From Candidatus Delongbacteria bacterium (GTDB lineage: Bacteria; UBA4055): DNA of 30,705 nucleotides. This document shows positions 10,620 to 21,112 of the stretch, piece by piece. The DNA is taken from positions 1 to 30,705 of the forward strand of contig JAFGVM010000035.1 in assembly GCA_016937995.1 (NCBI GenBank), written 5' to 3'. Below the pieces are notes generated by a model, which made no database searches, had not been told where the DNA came from, and saw nothing but the letters and a program-made list of their open reading frames with translations. A program made the translations under genes and the position numbers. Position 1 is the first letter of the stretch; every line of letters begins with the position of its first letter.

Positions 10620-10664
10620 GAAAATATCAGATTTGCTATTAAGTCAATCAAAATGGGAAATATT

Positions 10665-13600
10665 ATGAAAAAGTTAATGTTTTTACTGTTTGCATTTACA
10701 ATTTTTTATCTGCAAGCAAGAACAGCTTATGAGAATCAGAAAACTTGGGATAACGATTTTTCAAGTGATATTACCAAGACCATAATTCCACAACCTCAAA
10801 ACAGAGTTCATAGAGCAGGTCTGTTGTGGCTGAACACTACAAATATGGGTTATTTAGGCAATCCTGACACTTATGACGACCCATGTACTGGACAAGTAGC
10901 TGAATCGGGTGAGATGCCCGGTGGGAGCGGGATGGACTTTATTTTTGTCAGTGGATTGATGTTCGGTGGATATAATGATTCTGAAGTTGTGAATGTTAAT
11001 GGCACCGATGCTACTGTTTTTGAAGGTCCCTATGTTACAACAGCTTACGAAGGTTGGTCCGGAAATCCTATGCCAAAAGAAATGTGGCCTGTAATGTTCG
11101 ATGCCGATGAAAGCGGATCTATTCTGGGAAGAATGAATGAAACATCCAACGTAGAAGGAAAGCTGAATTGTCTATTTGAAGAAGTATATAATCCTTCAGC
11201 GACAGCTGAGGAACAGTTCAGTACAATGTTTACGGATAAGTTCGTATTGAGAACACCTTATACTGGTATGGATGAGTATGACAACAGAGAGCACATACCA
11301 TTAGGGATCGAAGTAAAACAGAAAACTTATTCTTGGTCGTATGAATTTGCTCAAAAATTCATAATTGTTGATTATACGATCTATAACAGGCATCCCGGTG
11401 GTAAAGATATTTTTGATTTCTTCATGGGTCTCTATATGGACTGTGATATCGGACCGATAGGAGGAGATATAACTTATAATCATGCAGATGATCTGGGAGG
11501 ATTTATTCAGAAATGGGACGGTTATATAGATCCTGCGTCAGGTGAACAAAAAACAATGGACCTTAATCTTGCATGGGCTGCCGATAATGACGGCAGAAGT
11601 TATACAGGTACAAATTTTTATTCAGCGACGGGAGAGCCAGGAGCCGGATCTGTTCTGGATGGTGCTACAGGAGTGGTAGCGGTAAAAGTCCTCAGGAATC
11701 CTAGTCCTAATATGAGATATGCTTATAATATGTATATAGCATCATCAAATGATGAAGCACAGGACTGGAGTCCTCACTGGAAAACAGGCTTACATTCAGA
11801 CTGGAATTATGACCTTACACCTGAGCAATTAGGTTATGATGATTATAATCAGGACGGTCTAACAAATGGAGGTGGTCAACCTTTAGCGGGAGGTAGAGTA
11901 GAAGGCAGACCTGCTGGTGATAAAGGTAAATATATGGTCATGTCAAATGATGAATTTGATTACAATCAGTATGATATAATTTCAGTTGACAACGGCACAT
12001 ACAGTGATCCTGAATATATGATAGGTTCACCATATGCGCAGGCTGAAAAATGGCAGGAATGGCTTGATCCAACAGAACCATTACCTTCTCCTGCTGATGT
12101 GCATGATGGTGGTTTGGATGATAGAAATGATATAGCTAACGGTGCAGATACAAAAGCTATTCTATCTTTTGGACCTTTAGGAACTCAGAGACAGGTAAAT
12201 ATAGCAGTTGATACAGATGATAATGGTGTAATGGATGACTTTATCAACAATAAATCAGTATGGGAATTCGCTTATGGAGATTCCATCAAACTGACACTGG
12301 CATTCATTGCTGGCGAGAATTTTCACACTTCACTTCAGCAGGACCCAACATACTCAGATCCTGCAGCCAGATTTCCTGTTGACGGACTGGACCCTTCGCT
12401 TTTTGATAAAGGATGGTATGATGTGCTGAACAATGTTATCTGGTGCGAGAGGATGTATGATATTCCTATGTTCGATACTCCTGTAGAAAAATATGGAGAA
12501 AAAAAAGGAGACGGATGGTATGGAGAGGATATCGGAGTTGACGGAATATTTGCAGGTACAGGGATCACTGAATGCTGGTGGACTGATCCTGCGTCAGGTT
12601 ATGCAGGACCTGACGAAGGTGAAAGTAATTTCGAACTGGATAATTTTACAAGTCCGATAACAGATATTTATGGACATAATGCAACAGGTGAAGATAATCT
12701 GTTACCGTTCGGAAGAGAAATTGGTGATTTCGATTTTGGTCATACAAACGATTATGGATGCATGGTATTATATGACAATTTTATAGATCCATATCCGGGT
12801 ATTGCACCCGGGCAATTGGTAAGATACGGTTTTGACAACGGAAGGCTTGATCCAGGAGACGGTGTACCTGATTTTACAGGACCACCACCACCACCTTCAC
12901 CAAAAATAGAAGTTAGATTTGAAGAAAATGATGTAATAGTTGAATGGAATTCAGTTGAATTTTATACTATGGAGGATGAAACTGAAGCATATTCAGGACC
13001 CGAATTATTCATTGATCCATTCACTAGAGAAAAAGATTTCGAATCCTACACAGTGAAAATATCTCCAAATTCAAATGCAAATAATTTTATTGATCTCTTA
13101 ACAGTAGACAATATAAATTATGCTTATCAGAATGTTGCTGACCTGGGAGATTATCTGGATAAACCGATCCATCCTGATTCTATTGCAGCACATCCTGAAA
13201 ATTATCCTGCTTTAATAACTGAATCAGGTAAAATATGGGAGCTTGTTCCGTTCGGTGACAATAAGGACATAGTAGCAAATCATTCAGTTAATGATATTTT
13301 TGAATATACTGTGACACCTGCTGTCGTTACTATAAACGAAGGAACTCCTGCTGAAGAAACAGTAAATTATCATCAGTATGGTTTAAGGCTTTTCAACAAG
13401 TATCTTGAAAATGCATCGTATATCTCTGTTGTTTCAACAGATTTTGGAGATCCAAGAGCAGGTATACCTGCCAATACTTCGAGTATATATACAAATATGA
13501 AAAAGATCGGAGGTGTTGAAGATGAAGAAACTGTTATACCAGGAGTTACGAAACTTTATCAAAACTATCCGAATCCTTTTAACCCTGATACAAAAATAAA

Positions 13601-13805
13601 TTTCATATTAGGAAAAGCAGGTAATGTGAAACTTAACATTTATAATGTTTCAGGTCAGCTGATCGAAAAGCTGATCGATGAAGATCTTGACAGTGGATAT
13701 CACAGTAAAATATTCAAAGCTGATAAACTGAACAGCGGTATTTACTACTATACTTTACAAGCTGATAATAAAAAGATCACAAAGAAGATGGTTTTAGTTA
13801 AATAA
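10665..13805 (+). CDS. Large secreted protein with T9SS type A C-terminal sorting domain
   Basis: From ATG 10665 the product is 1046 aa. It has a signal peptide (MKKLMFLLFAFTIFYLQA), a long aromatic- and Asp/Gly-rich body, a proline run GPPPPPSPK (about 738-746) leading into a fibronectin-III-like module, and a sorting domain from about residue 963. The sorting domain shows NYPNPFNPDTKI, LNIYNVSGQLI, SGIYYYTL and a KKMVLVK end. The sorting domain targets cargo through the outer membrane by type IX secretion. The body resembles large uncharacterised FCB secreted proteins; no enzyme motif was recognised. ATG 10653 would add MGNI, but GGGAAA just after it probably serves as the ribosome binding site for 10665. 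It is co-transcribed with the lipoprotein gene 23 bp downstream. Confidence 0.8.
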   Translation: MKKLMFLLFAFTIFYLQARTAYENQKTWDNDFSSDITKTIIPQPQNRVHRAGLLWLNTTNMGYLGNPDTYDDPCTGQVAESGEMPGGSGMDFIFVSGLMFGGYNDSEVVNVNGTDATVFEGPYVTTAYEGWSGNPMPKEMWPVMFDADESGSILGRMNETSNVEGKLNCLFEEVYNPSATAEEQFSTMFTDKFVLRTPYTGMDEYDNREHIPLGIEVKQKTYSWSYEFAQKFIIVDYTIYNRHPGGKDIFDFFMGLYMDCDIGPIGGDITYNHADDLGGFIQKWDGYIDPASGEQKTMDLNLAWAADNDGRSYTGTNFYSATGEPGAGSVLDGATGVVAVKVLRNPSPNMRYAYNMYIASSNDEAQDWSPHWKTGLHSDWNYDLTPEQLGYDDYNQDGLTNGGGQPLAGGRVEGRPAGDKGKYMVMSNDEFDYNQYDIISVDNGTYSDPEYMIGSPYAQAEKWQEWLDPTEPLPSPADVHDGGLDDRNDIANGADTKAILSFGPLGTQRQVNIAVDTDDNGVMDDFINNKSVWEFAYGDSIKLTLAFIAGENFHTSLQQDPTYSDPAARFPVDGLDPSLFDKGWYDVLNNVIWCERMYDIPMFDTPVEKYGEKKGDGWYGEDIGVDGIFAGTGITECWWTDPASGYAGPDEGESNFELDNFTSPITDIYGHNATGEDNLLPFGREIGDFDFGHTNDYGCMVLYDNFIDPYPGIAPGQLVRYGFDNGRLDPGDGVPDFTGPPPPPSPKIEVRFEENDVIVEWNSVEFYTMEDETEAYSGPELFIDPFTREKDFESYTVKISPNSNANNFIDLLTVDNINYAYQNVADLGDYLDKPIHPDSIAAHPENYPALITESGKIWELVPFGDNKDIVANHSVNDIFEYTVTPAVVTINEGTPAEETVNYHQYGLRLFNKYLENASYISVVSTDFGDPRAGIPANTSSIYTNMKKIGGVEDEETVIPGVTKLYQNYPNPFNPDTKINFILGKAGNVKLNIYNVSGQLIEKLIDEDLDSGYHSKIFKADKLNSGIYYYTLQADNKKITKKMVLVK

Positions 13806-13828
13806 TAAATTCGGATATGGAGAAAATT

Positions 13829-16378
13829 ATGTTGAAAAAGACAATATTAACATTATCAATGGTCATTTTACTTACCATCACAGTTCTTTCATGTTCTGAT
13901 GACAGCAATCCGTCTGATCCGGTTGAATCTTATATTACAATCCTATCTCCTGTGGGTGGTGAAATATTTATGCCTGATTCTACCGAAAGTCTTTTATGGG
14001 AAGATAATATTGATGAAAATGTAAAGATCGATCTTTATAAAAATTCGGTTTTAGATATGGTAATTGCTGAATCTGTTGAAAGCAGTGGATCGTATGACTG
14101 GAAAGTTCCTTCAGGTATTGAAGAAGGTACAGATTATAAAATCAGAATAGCAAGTGTTGAAGATTCAACATTATATGATGAGAGTGGAACTGATTTTAAG
14201 ATCACATCAGTATCTTCTATTATTGTGACTGAACCGAGTGGAGGTGAAATCTGGAATGTCGGAGGTCAAAGGTCTATAAAATGGAATTTCAATTCGAAAG
14301 GTTTGGTGAACATAGATCTTTACAAAAATGATACATTTTACCAGACAATAAAAGATTCAGCTGATAATAATGGTGTTTATGAATGGTACATTCCTGCAGA
14401 ACTTCCACAGGACAATGACTATAAAATAAAAATAACTAATGTGACTGATGAAATTATAACTGATATGAGTGATGAATTCTTCAGCATGGATCTGCCTGAA
14501 GTTTACATATATGATACTTCAGACATTATTGCCAATTCTGAATATAAAGTACAGTGGTATGGCAACAGCAATGACAGTACAAATTTAAGTTATTTTTATT
14601 GTATTTCTACTGATACTGCAATGACAAATACAGAATCTGAAACTGCTCTCACAGGTTTATGGTCAGGTACATCAAATAACTATGCTGAAGTTTCTTTCCC
14701 GATGACTTATCTGAACAGTACAAAACTATTTACCGACAGTATTACATATATTGATAGTGTCCAAGCCATCGAAGTAACAAGAAAGATCGTATGGTCTAAG
14801 TTCTTCGTATACGGTGTTGATGAATTCGGAGCTGTGAGTGATGTTAAGTCCAAAGTTTTTGGAAGAATGAATAATAAACCTAAGCATCCAATGATATATT
14901 CTGAAACATTTGGGATTAATGGCTTTGATCAATACTGGTTCACTATTGGACCTGATTCAGCGAAGATAGTTCTTCCTAATGAAACATCATACTGGAAACC
15001 TCTTGAATTCGGATGGATGGGTGAAGATCCAGACGGTCCTGAAGTAGATCTTGAATTCAGATGGGAATTATGGGCTCTGGATGACCTTGGTGCTGATATC
15101 GAAATAATTGCAGCTTCAAATGATTGGTCAGTAAGTAATATCTCTGTTGAATTTTCAGATGTGATCTATAACTATTCGTCAGAGGGAAATTATTCGTTCA
15201 GGATATGGGTAAGAGATGACGCACTTGAGGAGGCAGAGAATCATGCTACAGTAAATTTTTCTACTTTTTCACCTACATTTGAAAAGGGGATTATTTTTAT
15301 AGATGATACTGATGATGATAAATACAATTCAATGGACTATATGCAGAATACGGGTAACCCTGATGGTGTTGCAGTGAAGGCAATGTATGAACAGTTCCTG
15401 CAGAATGCAGGATATCAGGCTGATGCTGGAGATCCTTTATTGGATTATGATGCAGTTGATTTTGCGGAACCGATACCCGGAGAAGTATATCAACCTGATC
15501 TAAAAACATTGTCTGGTTACAGAATGATAGTTATTACAACAGAAGATAGAAGTACTTCTACAGGTATTTCATATGCAAAATATATGGATCAACTCTCTGA
15601 ATATATGAATATTGGTGGAAAAGTAATGATAATAGGTAACTCAGCAATTTTATTACATGATCTATATGTTAATAATTATGAAGAACCGTTTACTGATAAT
15701 TTTGAAAATGCTTCTTACCTGAACATAGATATGTGTAGATTTTTCTATGAATATTTCGGCATCTATAATTATTCTACACCTGAATCTAAAACATTTTTCT
15801 GTCAGCTTTTATATGATATAGGACACCCTTTACTTCCATCAGATTATTATATGACGGACAATTACGATTTCATAGGAGCTACAAAATATGATCATATATC
15901 AGATCCGGGTATAGGAGAACTTAAAGTTGACAGTACTCAGGTGAATAAATACTGGAAGAACTATCCGGGACCGGGTGGCAGTACTTTTGAATTTACTTTG
16001 AAAGAGAACGGCACTGTACTTACTGGGATCCCTACATTCCAAGCATATAAAGGTGAGATAGTCCTTAAGTACAAATCGATCTATGATCTGCCATTTGAAA
16101 CCGGAAGTGATTCTACAACAGTTGACGGTGACCTTGTACATGATCTGAAATGGAGAAATCCTGTAGCTGATGCAACAGAGAATATTAGTGGGCCTGTTCT
16201 TGAAAAATCAGGTGCAGTTGCTACAAGATATATAAGTACAGGAGATATTTACAGAACTGCTTTTATAGGATTACCACTGATATTCATGGATAATTCAAAT
16301 GGTGAAGTCAGTGACATGTTCAGTGCTATGATCGACTGGTTCGCACTGGAAAACGATCCAGCGGATAACTGGAAATAA
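13829..16378 (+). CDS. Large outer-surface lipoprotein with two Kre9/KNH-like repeats
   Basis: From ATG 13829 (GGAG eight bases upstream; ATG 13817 is less likely) the product is 849 aa. The lipobox VLSC ends at Cys22, followed by SDDSN, similar to the acidic lipoprotein export signal that sends Bacteroidetes lipoproteins to the cell surface. Two tandem repeats of about 90 aa (about 35-120 and 128-215) share SPxGGEIW, IKWNF/LLWEDN, VxIDLYKN, YxWxIPxxL and DYKIKI, the pattern of Kre9/KNH (Ser-Thr-rich) beta-sandwich domains. From about residue 486 a different domain begins (GIIFIDDTDDD, then MIVITTEDR and IGGKVMIIGNS), like the Rossmann-type strands of a flavodoxin/amidotransferase fold. Function unknown. 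The upstream T9SS cargo gene in the same transcript is a natural partner. Confidence 0.75.
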   Translation: MLKKTILTLSMVILLTITVLSCSDDSNPSDPVESYITILSPVGGEIFMPDSTESLLWEDNIDENVKIDLYKNSVLDMVIAESVESSGSYDWKVPSGIEEGTDYKIRIASVEDSTLYDESGTDFKITSVSSIIVTEPSGGEIWNVGGQRSIKWNFNSKGLVNIDLYKNDTFYQTIKDSADNNGVYEWYIPAELPQDNDYKIKITNVTDEIITDMSDEFFSMDLPEVYIYDTSDIIANSEYKVQWYGNSNDSTNLSYFYCISTDTAMTNTESETALTGLWSGTSNNYAEVSFPMTYLNSTKLFTDSITYIDSVQAIEVTRKIVWSKFFVYGVDEFGAVSDVKSKVFGRMNNKPKHPMIYSETFGINGFDQYWFTIGPDSAKIVLPNETSYWKPLEFGWMGEDPDGPEVDLEFRWELWALDDLGADIEIIAASNDWSVSNISVEFSDVIYNYSSEGNYSFRIWVRDDALEEAENHATVNFSTFSPTFEKGIIFIDDTDDDKYNSMDYMQNTGNPDGVAVKAMYEQFLQNAGYQADAGDPLLDYDAVDFAEPIPGEVYQPDLKTLSGYRMIVITTEDRSTSTGISYAKYMDQLSEYMNIGGKVMIIGNSAILLHDLYVNNYEEPFTDNFENASYLNIDMCRFFYEYFGIYNYSTPESKTFFCQLLYDIGHPLLPSDYYMTDNYDFIGATKYDHISDPGIGELKVDSTQVNKYWKNYPGPGGSTFEFTLKENGTVLTGIPTFQAYKGEIVLKYKSIYDLPFETGSDSTTVDGDLVHDLKWRNPVADATENISGPVLEKSGAVATRYISTGDIYRTAFIGLPLIFMDNSNGEVSDMFSAMIDWFALENDPADNWK

Positions 16379-16398: not shown

Positions 16399-16425
16399 AA
16401 AAAAGGTGCTACAGGCACCTTTTTT
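16399..16425 (+). terminator. Rho-independent terminator after the lipoprotein gene
   Basis: Perfect 11-bp stem AAAAAAGGTGC (16399-16409) / GCACCTTTTTT (16415-16425) with a TACAG loop, continuing into ATTTTTG. Starts 20 bp after the stop codon and separates this unit from the next operon. Confidence 0.9.
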
Positions 16426-16442: not shown

Positions 16443-16471
16443 TTGTCAATATTTGTTTATATTTGTATATA
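16443..16471 (+). promoter_or_regulatory. Sigma-70-like promoter of the four-gene unknown operon
   Basis: TTGTCA (16443-16448), 17-nt spacer, TATATA (16466-16471). Lies between the terminator at 16399-16425 and ATG 16509, giving a leader of about 30 nt. Confidence 0.6.
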
Positions 16472-16508
16472 CATATGTCATTAGTTCGTATTAAAATGGA
16501 GATGATGG

Positions 16509-16919
16509 ATGAAAAAAATAAAAGTCAGATCGATAGATCTAATTGATCTGATAGATTTTTTAGAGAACAGAGATTACATAGTTGACGAAATTTCGGAAAA
16601 CCTTTTGTCAGCCAATAAATCAGGCGAAATGACAGTTTATATCAGCATAATTGATGATGTAATGTATTTTTATGTAGACCTAGGTAACGTTAGTGATATA
16701 GCCGACAAAGAAATGTATTTTAAAATACTTGACCTGAATACAGAGATTTTACCAGTGAGTATAGGAATTGACACCACAAAAGAAAACAATCATCGATTGG
16801 TGATCGTAGAGAGCAGAGAAACTGATAATCTGGATGATAATGAATTATTGTACATATTCAATGCTATAGAGATCGCAACAGATAAAGTTGCAATGCTGCT
16901 GGCCGAATATTTGCAATAA
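16509..16919 (+). CDS. Small acidic protein, possible CesT/YbjN/DUF2170-like fold
   Basis: Protein of 136 aa, rich in Asp, Glu and Ile, with no signal peptide or membrane segment. It reads as an N-terminal helix (DLIDLIDFLENRDY), a central beta sheet (MTVYISIIDDVMYFYVDLG), a segment ending LDLNTEILPVSIGID, another strand (RLVIVESR) and a long C-terminal helix. This order is typical of the CesT/YbjN chaperone-like fold, and the LPVSIGI segment recalls the PLSSxGI motif of YjfI (DUF2170) proteins, but the match is remote. ATG 16509 is fixed by GGAG at 16498-16501. First gene of a four-gene operon; a chaperone- or adaptor-like role is inference only. Confidence 0.6.
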   Translation: MKKIKVRSIDLIDLIDFLENRDYIVDEISENLLSANKSGEMTVYISIIDDVMYFYVDLGNVSDIADKEMYFKILDLNTEILPVSIGIDTTKENNHRLVIVESRETDNLDDNELLYIFNAIEIATDKVAMLLAEYLQ

Positions 16920-16935
16920 ATACAGGAGTTAAATT

Positions 16936-17484
16936 ATGGATAATACAAAAAACAAAATATATCTTCCCGCATTGACTGAGTTGTATAACAGAGTTGAAGA
17001 TCTTTCTAGGGTGATAAAAGAAAATGGAGAGGACATTGCATACAATATAAAACTTTATTTTAGAAATGTTGATATTGATCCTGCTGTATGGTGCAGAGAG
17101 AATGATCTGTCTTTTGAAACCTATAAAAACGATCTTAAGAATGAAGATTTTTTTAAGCTGAAAGAATATTTATATCTGATACTCTACAAGAAGAAAAAGA
17201 AATTCTCTATATCAAATGATATAGAAATAGAGGATAGTAACAAGATCGGAGTTAACAACATAATTAAAGCATTAAACTCAAAAAACACGAATAAATTATG
17301 GGCATCGATTAGTTATTACATACTGATGAATCACAAAAATATCAGAACTTTCTGTAAGAATTTTGAAGAAAATAATTTCAATGTAAAATACTCAACTTTT
17401 AGAACAGATAAATATAATCAGGGAATAAATACTGCGATTAAGTACGCAAATATGATACTGGAATATGTAAAAAGGGTGAAGTAA
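16936..17484 (+). CDS. Unrecognised 182-aa soluble protein
   Basis: No family recognised. The protein is predicted to be mostly helical and soluble, with a basic patch (YKKKKKF, about 85-91) and a Lys/Asn-rich composition. There are two helical halves: residues 8-90, containing NIKLYFRNVDIDPAVWCREN, and residues 107-180, ending in AIKYANMILEYVKRVK. No catalytic motif, signal peptide or membrane segment is visible. AGGAG upstream (16923-16927) supports ATG 16936, 16 bp after the preceding stop. The gene abuts the next one: its TAA is immediately followed by the ATG of the coiled-coil gene, implying translational coupling and a shared role in the cassette. Confidence 0.7.
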   Translation: MDNTKNKIYLPALTELYNRVEDLSRVIKENGEDIAYNIKLYFRNVDIDPAVWCRENDLSFETYKNDLKNEDFFKLKEYLYLILYKKKKKFSISNDIEIEDSNKIGVNNIIKALNSKNTNKLWASISYYILMNHKNIRTFCKNFEENNFNVKYSTFRTDKYNQGINTAIKYANMILEYVKRVK

Positions 17485-17874
17485 ATGGGAATATTGAACA
17501 AAATACTGAAAGAGAAAGGTTTAACACCTTACAGCACAGAATTAAAGGAAGTTCTAGATGAAAAGATAAATGAGATCATTTCCATCATTGACAGCAAGGA
17601 ATCTGATCTGAGAAAATTTAAAAATGAGAAGAATAATCTTCTTAACTCTGAAAATAATGTAACAGTTGAGAATAAAGTGCTGATAAATTTGAACAATGAG
17701 ATATCTGATCTGAAGAGCGATATTTTAGATCTGAAGGATGAAATGAATGAAATTGAAAGTATAAATAATATCATCAACTATCAGAATAAGTTATCAGGGG
17801 TAAAAAGGGAAATCGGTAAAGTCAATCAGAATGATGGTTCGGACCTGGTTACAAAATTGAAAAATAAAAAATAA
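17485..17874 (+). CDS. Small coiled-coil protein
   Basis: Protein of 129 aa dominated by a charged coiled coil (about residues 18-108), with heptad-like spacing of Leu/Ile in segments such as LNNEISDLKSDILDLKDEMN. A short N-terminal leader (MGILNKILKEKG) and a Lys-rich tail frame it. The MGI-LxxLKE start recalls the N-terminal helix of PspA-like proteins, but the protein is far too short for PspA and shows no further similarity, so I do not assign it. ATG 17485 directly follows the upstream TAA, with AAGGGTGAAG as the ribosome binding site. It probably acts as an oligomerising scaffold or partner of its neighbours. Confidence 0.7.
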   Translation: MGILNKILKEKGLTPYSTELKEVLDEKINEIISIIDSKESDLRKFKNEKNNLLNSENNVTVENKVLINLNNEISDLKSDILDLKDEMNEIESINNIINYQNKLSGVKREIGKVNQNDGSDLVTKLKNKK

Positions 17875-17878
17875 TTAT

Positions 17879-18406
17879 ATGCCTAACATTGAATTTATCA
17901 CAGATAGAAATATTTACGAAAAAGTAATTTTGGAACGGATACCATTCGCAAAAGAATTTTTATGGATCGGTACCAGTGATATGAAGGACCTTTACGTATC
18001 TAAGAATAAAAAAATGGTGCCTTTTCTGGAGATATTATCTGACCTGATTAAAAAAGGTGTTTCGATCCGGATCATACATGCTAAGGAACCGGGCGAGAAC
18101 TATAAAAAAGATTTTGATAAATATCATGTTTTAATAAAAAATATTGAAATGTTCCTTTGTCCGAGGATACACTTCAAAAGTGTAATTATAGATGGCCGTT
18201 TTGCATACTCTGGAAGTGCAAATTTAACCGGGTCAGGAATGGGTTCAAAGAGTAAGGATAAAAGAAATTTCGAATCTGGTTTTATCACTGACGATCCTGT
18301 TCTAGTCGGCAGTATCATGTCACAGTTCGACCAATTGTGGATGGGTAAACACTGCAAGACCTGCAAAAGAAAAGAATATTGTTTTGAACATAAGAAATTT
18401 TTATAA
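17879..18406 (+). CDS. Single-HKD phospholipase D-like protein with C-terminal Cys/His cluster
   Basis: A 175-aa PLD-fold protein with one catalytic motif, HFKSVIID (H98, K100, D105), followed by SGSANLTGSGMG and NFESGF, the standard end of a PLD half-domain. Proteins with one HKD normally dimerise to build the active site; members include nucleases (Nuc type) and phosphodiesterases. The C terminus adds CKTCKRKEYCFEH (C159, C162, C168, H171), a likely zinc site rarely expected in plain PLD proteins. No signal peptide, so it is probably cytoplasmic, which favours nucleic acid over lipid as substrate (inference). It starts 4 bp after the coiled-coil gene with no visible Shine-Dalgarno, suggesting translational coupling. 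Last gene of the operon; no terminator seen after it. Confidence 0.8.
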   Translation: MPNIEFITDRNIYEKVILERIPFAKEFLWIGTSDMKDLYVSKNKKMVPFLEILSDLIKKGVSIRIIHAKEPGENYKKDFDKYHVLIKNIEMFLCPRIHFKSVIIDGRFAYSGSANLTGSGMGSKSKDKRNFESGFITDDPVLVGSIMSQFDQLWMGKHCKTCKRKEYCFEHKKFL

Positions 18407-18669: not shown

Positions 18670-18822
18670 ATGAAAAGAACATTTCAGCCGTCGAATAGAA
18701 AAAGAAGAAATAAGCACGGTTTCAGAGAAAGAATGTCTACAGCAAACGGCAGAAAAGTACTTTCCCGCAGAAGAAGAGCTGGAAGAAAAAGACTGACTGT
18801 AAGTGACGAAATAAGAAGATAA
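18670..18822 (+). CDS. rpmH: 50S ribosomal protein L34
   Basis: A 50-aa strongly basic protein with the L34 sequence pattern: [18 protein letters not shown] at the start, then [21 protein letters not shown]34 is a late-assembling component of the large ribosomal subunit. GGAG lies eight bases upstream of ATG 18670. It is first in the conserved rpmH-rnpA-yidD-yidC order and is separated from rnpA by only 14 bp. The usual upstream neighbour dnaA is absent; a PLD-like gene is there instead. Confidence 0.97.
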
Positions 18823-18836
18823 GCAATGGAGATCCG

Positions 18837-19232
18837 GTGAAAGAGAATTCTTTGAAAAAGAATCTCATTCTCAAAAATAAAGATGACATCACTCAAGCAC
18901 TTAGGAATGGGACTCGTTTTGAGAATGACTCACTAAGGATTATTATTTCGAAAGGAAATGGAGAAAGCAACTTTAAAGTTGCTTTCTTAGTAAGTAAGAA
19001 ACTAGGAAAAAGAGCTGTTCTTAGAAATAAAATCAAAAGATGGTTAAGAGAAATATTCAGGTATAATAAAAACGAATTCCCTATTTCCTATCACGTAATA
19101 TTAACCGTTAAACAAAGATATGATCAAATTAGTTACAAAAGCCTAAAAGAAGATTTCATGGAGATCATTACGAGTGAAAAATTTAATAATTACACTAGTA
19201 AGATTATACCAAAAGTTCCTGGCACCAATTAA
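18837..19232 (+). CDS. rnpA: Ribonuclease P protein component
   Basis: A 131-aa basic protein carrying the RnpA signature KRAVLRNKIKRWLRE (the RNR motif that contacts the RNase P RNA) and the preceding FKVAFLVSKKLGKR strand. It assists the catalytic RNA in removing 5' leaders from tRNA precursors. GTG 18837 is chosen as the start because GGAG lies six bases before it; the ATG at 18825 in another frame stops after four codons. The last 59 bp overlap the yidD gene in a different frame, an arrangement also known from other bacteria. Confidence 0.95.
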   Translation: MKENSLKKNLILKNKDDITQALRNGTRFENDSLRIIISKGNGESNFKVAFLVSKKLGKRAVLRNKIKRWLREIFRYNKNEFPISYHVILTVKQRYDQISYKSLKEDFMEIITSEKFNNYTSKIIPKVPGTN

Positions 19233-19434
19233 AAGAAGTAAATGTACTTTTGTTCCCACATGTTCTAATTATACTATTGAATCTATAGAAGACTACGGAG
19301 CTGTAAAAGGAGCAATACTAGGATTGTGGAGAGTGATCAGATGCAATCCTTTTAATAGAACTTACCACGATCCTCCGGCGAACTGGGAAAAAAAACTTCA
19401 CTTAAAAAAAATCAAACGGAAAATAAATGGATAA
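19174..19434 (+). CDS. yidD: Membrane protein insertion efficiency factor YidD
   Basis: An 86-aa protein of the YidD family: amphipathic start MKNLIITLVRLYQKFLAPIK, then the cysteine motif CTFVPTCSNYTIESIEDYG and RVIRCNPF, ending in a Lys-rich tail. YidD is membrane-associated and helps YidC/Sec insertion. GTG 19174 gives the standard N terminus but overlaps the 3' end of rnpA by 59 bp, and the stop overlaps the yidC start by 8 bp. Only a distant GGAG is present, so translation is probably coupled to rnpA. Confidence 0.93.
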   Translation: MKNLIITLVRLYQKFLAPIKRSKCTFVPTCSNYTIESIEDYGAVKGAILGLWRVIRCNPFNRTYHDPPANWEKKLHLKKIKRKING

Positions 19435-21112
19435 AAATACAAAATTAGCATTTTTCTTGATCGCTCTGGTAATAATCCTGTATCCTTACTTTATGCCTAA
19501 AGAACAAAAAGTACCTGTTACTGAAAAGCCTATCACAACTTATGAATCTAATCTTGATGACAACAAAACTGAATATGCTGAAACAACTACAGTAGCAGAA
19601 CTTAAACCGGCTGAAGATATCTTAGTTGATACAACTCTTTACAGAATGCCTGATATTAAAGATGTCATGATAGAGACTGATCTTTACAAAGCTCTTATAT
19701 CAAACAAAGGCGGTAAAATAAAAAGCTGGAAAATAAAGAAATACAGAAGCAGAGATGACTCTACCAAGCTTATTGATCTTATTTTTGAAAATACTGAAAA
19801 TCTGAAGACAGAGATATTCTTAAATAACGGTCAAACTTTATCAGGTCTCATAGCTGAAACAAATAAAGATAATATTTTGCTCAACAGCTCAAGAACTAAT
19901 GAAGAACTCATAATGCAATATAAAGATGCTTCAGGACAGCTTTTATTTACAAAAAAATATAAATTCTACAACGATAAATACTCATTTGACGTTTCCATAG
20001 ACACTACTCCTATTTATGATGACCTTAAAGATAAGAGCTCAATTGCTGTTAAATGGCTGGACGGACTTCAGTATACAGAAGTATCTGATAACGGTAAAAA
20101 TCTTAACAGGGAGGATTATTATCGTGAGACTTATGTAAAAGTAAAGGACGAAGAGTATCTGGATTTTGACGATAACGATGACAGTGAACTTATTACAGGC
20201 GACATTCAGTGGGGAGCGACCAGAACAAAATATTTTGAATTGTTCATTTTTGACAAAGAAGGATATTTCAATTCATTTCAAAATTTTCCAAGTAATGTTC
20301 CTAAAACGGAACTTTATACAGGAATGGGATTCTCACTTACTCTTGATAAAAACCCTGATCCTGTAAATAATTTCAGTGTTTATCTTGGCCCAATGGATAA
20401 CACTATTTTAAAATCATATGATCTTGATTTTGACTCGACGTTAAACTGGGGCTGGTCAATTATAAAGCCGTTTTCCCTTGCTATCTATTATACCTTAACA
20501 TTTCTTCACAGGTATATTGACAACTACGGTATAGTGATCATATTACTCTCTCTGATCGTGAATACACTTGTACTTCCTTTTACACTTAAAAGTTATAGAA
20601 GCCAGGCACAAATGAAAAAGATACAGCCTTACATAAAAGAATTGAAGGAAAAATATAAAGGTGACATGCAGAAGCAGCAGCAGGCAACAATGGAATTATA
20701 TAAAAAGCATGGTGTGAATCCATTCGGTTCATGTTTACCTACTTTAATACCTATGCCGATCCTTTATGGTATGTTCATTGTGTTTGGTGCAACAATTGAG
20801 TTCAGAGGAGCAAATTTTGCCTTTTGGATCACTGACCTTTCATTACCTGAGGTTATGTTCACCTTACCTTTTTCTATCCCGATGTACGGGGCGAACGTAG
20901 GATTACTTCCTATACTTATGGGAGTTACAATGTTCTATCAGATGAAGGACACTATGAGTGCAGATCCTAATCAGAAGATGATGAAATATTTTATGCCTGT
21001 ATTCCTTCTTGTGCTCTTCAATAATTTTGCTTCAGGTCTGATCTTATATTATACGATCGGAAATGTTTTCAGGATGGTTCAACAAAAATTTACAACGAGC
21101 AGTGATAAATGA
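19427..21112 (+). CDS. yidC: Membrane protein insertase YidC (Gram-negative type)
   Basis: Insertase of 561 aa: N-terminal membrane anchor (about residues 6-23), a periplasmic beta domain (about 60-330), and a five-helix insertase core from about 340 (WGWSIIKPFSLAIYYTLTFLH) to the end. The core includes the cytoplasmic hairpin KIQPYIKELKEKYKGDMQKQ and the NPFGSCLPTLIPMPI segment. It inserts and folds inner-membrane proteins with or without SecYEG. Aligning IVNTLVLPFTLKSYRSQAQM with E. coli and Bacillus homologues puts Asn379 where a basic groove residue (R366 in E. coli, R73 in Bacillus SpoIIIJ) is usual. The stop overlaps the next gene by ATGA. jag and mnmE, frequent downstream neighbours, are missing. 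Confidence 0.97.
   Translation: MDKNTKLAFFLIALVIILYPYFMPKEQKVPVTEKPITTYESNLDDNKTEYAETTTVAELKPAEDILVDTTLYRMPDIKDVMIETDLYKALISNKGGKIKSWKIKKYRSRDDSTKLIDLIFENTENLKTEIFLNNGQTLSGLIAETNKDNILLNSSRTNEELIMQYKDASGQLLFTKKYKFYNDKYSFDVSIDTTPIYDDLKDKSSIAVKWLDGLQYTEVSDNGKNLNREDYYRETYVKVKDEEYLDFDDNDDSELITGDIQWGATRTKYFELFIFDKEGYFNSFQNFPSNVPKTELYTGMGFSLTLDKNPDPVNNFSVYLGPMDNTILKSYDLDFDSTLNWGWSIIKPFSLAIYYTLTFLHRYIDNYGIVIILLSLIVNTLVLPFTLKSYRSQAQMKKIQPYIKELKEKYKGDMQKQQQATMELYKKHGVNPFGSCLPTLIPMPILYGMFIVFGATIEFRGANFAFWITDLSLPEVMFTLPFSIPMYGANVGLLPILMGVTMFYQMKDTMSADPNQKMMKYFMPVFLLVLFNNFASGLILYYTIGNVFRMVQQKFTTSSDK

What the first reader, a model, noticed from the sequence alone, without database searches (positions are those of the whole stretch)
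16443..18406. Tight four-gene cassette of unknown function ending in a single-HKD PLD with a Cys/His cluster
The genes are separated by 16, 0 and 4 bp, lie behind a dedicated promoter and follow a strong terminator. Their order is a small acidic protein (possible CesT/YbjN/DUF2170-like fold), an unrecognised helical protein, a short coiled-coil protein and a PLD-fold enzyme with C-x2-C-x5-C-x2-H at its end. Seen: order, spacing, motifs. Known: single-HKD PLD proteins dimerise and include nucleases. Inference: chaperone/adaptor, scaffold and PLD effector could form one system, perhaps in DNA/RNA repair or stress defence. I know of no described system with this order.
Basis: partly seen in the sequence, partly recalled or inferred. 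Interest (0 to 1): 0.72.

Follow-up and report, generated by a model that had tools for sequence, protein, structure and literature searches.

The report
Shrunken membrane-stress operon beside a PLD
Four neighbouring genes in a little-known bacterium turn out to be three genes of a known kind of membrane-stress module, in which the usual membrane-coating protein PspA seems to have shrunk to its core hairpin, sitting next to an unrelated, widespread phospholipase-D-fold enzyme.

Summary
The four genes are real, tightly packed and under strong purifying selection, but the order A-B-C-D occurs only in the three sampled species of one Candidatus Delongbacteria genus. It breaks into two inheritances. 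(1) Genes A-B-C form a CesT/Tir-PspA-type (phage-shock) module. A is a CesT_Tir_1 chaperone-fold protein. In two other Delongbacteria genera A and B are followed by a full-length PspA; in the window's genus a 129-aa protein, C, stands in that place and no PspA is found in the genome. C looks like a shortened PspA: its ends align with PspA, it beats nearly all shuffles, and it is predicted as helix 0 plus the helix 1-3 hairpin, without helices 4-5. B is a Delongbacteria-only helical protein, perhaps with a cro/C1-like helix-turn-helix. (2) D is a widespread ~170-aa single-HKD PLD. Elsewhere in the family it sits after an EamA gene at the same chromosomal site without A-B-C; in rumen Bacteroidales it often follows type IV restriction genes. 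The claimed C-x2-C-x5-C-x2-H motif is better read as four conserved cysteines (C94, C159, C162, C168). The CesT-PspA association is published; new are the shortened PspA, protein B and the PLD linkage.

The parts
16399..16425 (+). intrinsic terminator of the preceding gene, separating it from the cassette
   Evidence: 12-pair stem plus T tract; conserved in all three species
16443..16471 (+). probable promoter, TTGTCA-17-TATATA
   Evidence: sequence; surrounding stretch nearly invariant in three species whose coding genes are near saturation at synonymous sites
16509..16919 (+). gene A: CesT/Tir-like chaperone-fold protein, 136 aa, pI 4.17
   Evidence: PF22550 27.5 bits over cut-off 27; orthologue in G007 32.8 bits; followed by B then PspA in G004 and G007
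16936..17484 (+). gene B: Delongbacteria-only helical protein, 182 aa; residues about 30-85 weakly HTH-like
   Evidence: no Pfam/NCBIfam/PADLOC match; found only in 5 Delongbacteria of 386 genomes; AlphaFold2 pLDDT 83.5; VIA best matches POU-specific HTH Z 6.3 and PrgX HTH Z 4.1
17485..17874 (+). gene C: probable shortened PspA (helix 0 plus helical hairpin), 129 aa
   Evidence: occupies the pspA position; hhalign to PspA E 1.8e-4, prob 48.6; shuffle tests; AlphaFold2 pLDDT 88, helices 3-11, 20-53, 59-127; ESCRT-III members among tied structural matches
17879..18406 (+). gene D: single-HKD PLD-fold enzyme, 175 aa
   Evidence: PF13091 E 1.3e-15 and PF00614; widespread orphan family
18170..18223 (+). 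HxKx4Dx6GSxN catalytic motif of D (H98-N115)
   Evidence: sequence; H98, K100, D105, G112, S113, N115 at least 90% conserved
18158..18160 (+). codon of conserved Cys94, candidate fourth ligand of the Cys site of D
   Evidence: at least 90% conserved in the aligned family
18353..18382 (+). C-x2-C-x5-C motif of D (C159, C162, C168)
   Evidence: at least 90% conserved; the following His is not conserved

Best explanation
A-B-C is a divergent CesT/Tir-PspA (phage-shock-type) envelope-stress module in which the PspA has been reduced to a 129-aa protein that keeps helix 0 and the membrane-binding helix 1-3 hairpin but has lost the hairpin tip and helices 4-5, so it should bind the inner membrane without building PspA rods. 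A, the chaperone-fold protein, would hold or deliver C (and/or B); B may be the module's regulator. D is an old, separately inherited PLD-fold phosphodiesterase, now immediately downstream and probably co-transcribed, because the module (or the PLD) came to lie there in this genus. Shown: gene identities of A and D, order, genus-level conservation, purifying selection, presence of A-B-PspA and of D alone in sister genera. Inferred: descent of C from PspA, membrane binding, chaperoning, regulation by B.
For: A is CesT_Tir_1; in 13 of 20 non-Delongbacteria CesT_Tir_1 loci over the Pfam cut-off a PspA ORF lies next to it. In G004 and G007 A and B (41-48% identical) are followed by full-length PspA (124 bits). 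PF04012 finds no PspA in G000-G002. C vs PspA: hhalign E 1.8e-4; global alignment scores beat all 500 plain and all 500 heptad-preserving shuffles in 5 of 6 comparisons and 499 heptad shuffles in the sixth; shared ends 'MG(I/F)(L/F)(N/S)(K/R)(I/L)' and 'SKxSxxKKxIxE...DL(V/I)S(K/R)(L/M)KxK'. AlphaFold2: confident helix 0 plus hairpin; ESCRT-III Snf7 core aligns over 107 residues at 2.0 A, Z 10.4. An isolated helix 1-3 or 0-3 fragment of the PspA relative IM30 binds membranes in vitro and in vivo (PMC12636044). dN/dS in the G001-G002 pair is 0.02-0.06 for all four genes. D without A-B-C in five genomes.
Against: C does not reach PspA_IM30 in Pfam; the hhalign probability is only 48.6; a broad PspA profile scores two of the three C proteins no better than 15-40 of 1000 shuffles. 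Long hairpins match many unrelated folds at equal Z. The window's C hairpin is acidic (pI 5.1), unlike the basic IM30 hairpin, although the two sister species' are basic. The four genes are co-oriented with gaps of at most 5 bp between C and D in all three species, which is compatible with D being a true partner; Ravi et al. report an HKD hydrolase in some CesT/Tir-PspA operons.
Confidence: 0.68

Rival explanations
1. All four genes act together: the PLD works on phospholipids at membrane sites marked by the mini-PspA and CesT-like protein, as a lipid-remodelling arm of an envelope-stress response.
For: Gaps of 16, 0 and 4 bp with a shared conserved promoter; order kept in three species with saturated synonymous sites; an HKD hydrolase is reported in some proteobacterial CesT/Tir-PspA operons (PMC11237479).
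Against: G004 and G007 have A-B-PspA and no D; five genomes have D without A-B; outside the genus no genome searched for both carries D and CesT_Tir_1 on one contig. Whether the published HKD protein is of D's family was not tested.
Confidence: 0.17
2. D is a nucleic-acid nuclease of defence or repair and A-B-C is its accessory defence cassette.
For: D's best family-level matches besides PLDc are nucleases of defence systems (DrmC E 9e-9, DpdK, NucT); in rumen and gut Bacteroidales D relatives lie directly downstream of GmrSD or McrBC genes.
Against: Those loci lack A-C; in Delongbacteria D lies beside EamA or rpmH, at a conserved site and not in an island; A-B go with PspA.
Confidence: 0.08
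3. C is not a PspA descendant but an unrelated coiled-coil protein that replaced PspA in the operon.
For: No Pfam-level match; structural matches of C are not specific; coiled coils align by chance.
Against: Position, co-linear ends, and heptad-preserving shuffles.
Confidence: 0.22

Closest known systems
CesT/Tir-PspA operons of Ravi et al. 2024 (PMC11237479), incl. E. coli yjfI-yjfJ type and the group with a potassium channel
   Same: CesT/Tir-like gene at the head of an operon with PspA; the sister genera even carry an ion-channel gene with an RCK/TrkA domain upstream; an HKD hydrolase occurs in some published operons.
   Different: Here PspA is reduced to a 129-aa protein, an undescribed protein B stands between CesT and PspA, and the usual spermidine, flotillin and DUF350 genes are absent from the cassette.
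bac cluster of Pseudomonas aeruginosa (BacA/PA3732 CesT-fold, BacB/PA3731 PspA; PMC10948618)
   Same: CesT-fold protein directly before a PspA-family protein.
   Different: BacA is DUF2170, A is PF22550; BacB is annotated as PspA; no B-like protein or PLD was compared.
PspA/IM30/Vipp1 (PF04012, ESCRT-III superfamily)
   Same: Predicted helix 0 and helix 1-3 hairpin, similar N- and C-terminal ends of the matched part.
   Different: C lacks helices 4-5 and part of the hairpin and does not reach the Pfam model.
Single-HKD PLD nucleases (NucT, DISARM DrmC, DpdK)
   Same: D has the HKD motif and is nearest to these in NCBIfam and PADLOC, far below the NCBIfam cut-offs.
   Different: D has its own conserved C94 plus C-x2-C-x5-C set and is not in a DISARM or Dpd locus.

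Membership tests
CesT/Tir-PspA (phage-shock) operon | CesT/Tir-superfamily protein | tested here: met
   A: PF22550 27.5 bits, cut-off 27; orthologue 32.8 bits
CesT/Tir-PspA (phage-shock) operon | PspA_IM30 protein over the Pfam cut-off in the same operon | tested here: not met
   In the window's genus none; met in sister genera G004 and G007. So the window locus is called CesT/Tir-PspA-like, not a member.
PspA/IM30 (PF04012) | score above the family cut-off of 33.9 bits | tested here: not met
   C has no PF04012 match
PspA/IM30 (PF04012) | helix 0 plus helix 1-3 hairpin | tested here: met
   AlphaFold2 model of C, pLDDT 88, pTM 0.70; prediction only
PspA/IM30 (PF04012) | at least five helices, including helices 4-5 beyond the hairpin | tested here: not met
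   C ends after the hairpin; definition from PMC12636044
PspA/IM30 (PF04012) | membrane binding and remodelling | not testable with these tools
   needs protein
PLD superfamily, single HKD | HxKx4Dx6GSxN motif and PLDc_2 signature | tested here: met
   residues H98 to N115 conserved
DISARM DrmC, DpdK, NucT | score above the NCBIfam cut-off | tested here: not met
   35.2 of 133, 22 of 100, 24.2 of 297 bits
cro/C1-type HTH proteins (for B) | recognisable HTH domain | tested here: inconclusive
   VIA Z 6.3 and 4.1 to HTH domains, below the level to trust for helical models; scattered HTH rows with E above 5 in BFVD; no Pfam match

The most novel reading that the evidence does not exclude
A natural minimal PspA/ESCRT-III protein (helix 0 plus hairpin only) has replaced full PspA in a CesT/Tir-type operon and works with a dedicated chaperone, a new DNA-binding regulator (B) and a PLD that remodels lipids or cleaves nucleic acid at stressed membranes: a polymer-free phage-shock response.
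Probability: 0.12. Interest if true: 0.75.

Novelty: new variant of a known kind. Interest (0 to 1): 0.45.

Why it matters
If C is a PspA cut down to helix 0 and the hairpin, and still under strong selection, it is a natural experiment on which part of an ESCRT-III-family protein suffices for envelope protection: membrane binding by the hairpin, or polymerisation that involves the later helices. It also adds an undescribed protein (B) to the CesT/Tir-PspA association, and it shows that a tight four-gene cassette can be a join of two inheritances, so spacing alone should not be read as one system.

Tried and rejected
A defence system: PADLOC gives only weak DrmC/DpdK matches for D and chance coiled-coil matches for C; an attempt to scan Bacteroidales neighbours against PADLOC failed on a frame error and was not repeated. 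An internal repeat in B, seen by eye: not supported (hhalign probability 2.4). Homologues of B beyond Delongbacteria: none in 386 genomes, plasmids or viral contigs. Foldseek for B: best E 2.7 and 3.6, nothing significant. PDB sequence search with C hit designed PPR proteins through one short helix, taken as artefact. A-profile hits to DNA primase PriL (E 0.015) were judged chance. Foldseek for C: 457 non-specific hairpin matches. A terminator-like hairpin at 16524-16552 inside gene A is not conserved in form. D in phages: none. First runs of the shuffle test failed for technical reasons and were redone.

Full report
What is there. The window is from a Candidatus Delongbacteria genome: its two nearest relatives are named so in public records. 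Four ORFs, A 16509-16919, B 16936-17484, C 17485-17874 and D 17879-18406, follow a 12-pair terminator (16399-16425) with gaps of 16, 0 and 4 bp. A stretch holding TTGTCA-17-TATATA (16443-16471) is almost unchanged in three species of the genus, although synonymous sites of the genes are near saturation; it is probably the promoter. No terminator was found after D, but rpmH, the next gene, has its own conserved upstream stretch. All four frames are intact in the three species, with dN/dS of 0.02-0.06 in the pair where dS can be estimated. C changes fastest (59-61% identity against 83-90% for the others).

Gene A is a CesT/Tir-type protein (PF22550, just over its cut-off). This family is a marker of PspA neighbourhoods: of 20 loci outside Delongbacteria that pass the cut-off, 13 have a PspA ORF next to the gene. 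In two other Delongbacteria genera, G004 and G007, orthologues of A and B stand in the same order and are followed by a full-length PspA of 229-230 aa (PF04012, 124 bits) and preceded by a response regulator-PAS gene and an ion-channel gene. The window's genus has only a distant paralogue of that channel (24%) and no PspA at all.

Gene C takes the place of pspA. It does not reach the PspA model of Pfam, so it is not filed as a member. Four things point to descent by shortening. First, position. Second, sequence: profile comparison gives E 1.8e-4, probability 48.6, with C 64-128 on PspA 106-175; both ends match (MGILNKIL / MGFFSRLF; QSKLSGIKKEIGE...DLVSKLKNK / QSKASEVKKNIFE...DLISRMKAK), and end-to-end alignment scores beat 500 plain and 500 heptad-keeping shuffles in five of six comparisons, 499 heptad shuffles in the sixth. 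A profile of the two Delongbacteria PspA proteins alone ranks C above 996-1000 of 1000 heptad shuffles; a broad PspA profile does so for only one of the three C proteins. Third, predicted shape: helix 3-11 and a hairpin 20-53 / 59-127 at pLDDT 88. Fourth, ESCRT-III proteins (Snf7, CHMP, Vipp1) are among the structures that cover most of it, at Z 9.6-10.4, but tied with unrelated hairpins, so this last point is weak. What is missing is part of the hairpin and helices 4-5. In IM30/Vipp1 the helix 1-3 hairpin alone, or with helix 0, binds membranes in vitro and in cells, while rods and barrels need the contacts of the assembled protein (PMC12636044). Inference: C may bind membranes without polymerising. 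Against easy binding, the window's C hairpin is acidic (pI 5.1); the sister species' are basic (9.1 and 8.8).

Gene B has no family match and was found in the same five Delongbacteria only, among 386 genomes. Its model (best pLDDT 83.5, but only two of the five models are good) has a long first helix and two groups of short helices. The two best structural matches of residues about 23-86 are helix-turn-helix domains, Z 6.3 and 4.1, and weak phage HTH rows recur. This is a lead for a regulator, not a result.

Gene D is a single-HKD PLD protein. It is inherited apart from A-C. In five other Delongbacteria genomes it is present without A or B, and where the contig shows it, it overlaps or abuts an EamA transporter gene at the same chromosomal place, between an ABC-F gene and rpmH (L021-L024). 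In the window the order is ABC-F, EamA, two secreted-protein genes, A, B, C, D, rpmH; in G002 there is one such gene. So either A-B-C entered upstream of D or D's neighbours were rearranged. Beyond the phylum D's family occurs in scattered genomes (25 of 386 in all at E 1e-15 or better) with no constant neighbour. In rumen and gut Bacteroidales it often lies straight after GmrSD, McrBC or PD-(D/E)XK genes. C94 lies four residues before the catalytic His, so a metal or iron-sulfur site next to the active site is possible (inference).

How it most likely works. A holds or delivers C, and perhaps B, to the inner membrane on envelope stress; C covers membrane through its hairpin; B may link this to transcription; D is an independent phosphodiesterase that now shares the transcript. 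Only the genes, their order, their conservation and the contexts are shown; the rest is inferred.

Relation to what is known. CesT/Tir-PspA operons and their variants were described by Ravi et al. 2024, who also note an HKD hydrolase in some proteobacterial ones (PMC11237479); a P. aeruginosa pair has a crystal structure of the CesT-like member (PMC10948618). New here are the shortened PspA-like protein, protein B and the link to this PLD family in one genus. I rate this a new variant of a known kind, moderately interesting.

Noticed in passing
L040, L044, L048, L049, L054, L056, L058, L061 (rumen/gut Bacteroidales): Relatives of the PLD (mostly 51-61% identical) lie directly downstream of type IV restriction genes (GmrSD, McrBC) or PD-(D/E)XK genes, often within 100 bp; a candidate accessory nuclease of such systems.
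   Followed up: partly
18158-18382 and PLD family: Four cysteines (C94, C159, C162, C168) are conserved across the PLD family, one of them four residues before the catalytic His.
   Followed up: partly
16936-17484 (B), residues about 30-85: Possible cro/C1-like helix-turn-helix in a protein family found only in Delongbacteria.
   Followed up: partly
18670-21112: rpmH-rnpA-yidD-yidC block follows the cassette without dnaA in front of it; rpmH has its own conserved upstream stretch.
   Followed up: no
10653-16378: Two large secreted proteins, the first with a C-terminal sorting-like end, lie between EamA and the cassette; differently placed in sister genera.
   Followed up: no
16524-16552: Terminator-like hairpin with T run inside the first codons of gene A; form not conserved in sister species.
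   Followed up: yes
528-2969: YedE-like transporter gene followed by a NifS/selenocysteine-lyase-like aminotransferase gene, judged from the sequence only.
   Followed up: no
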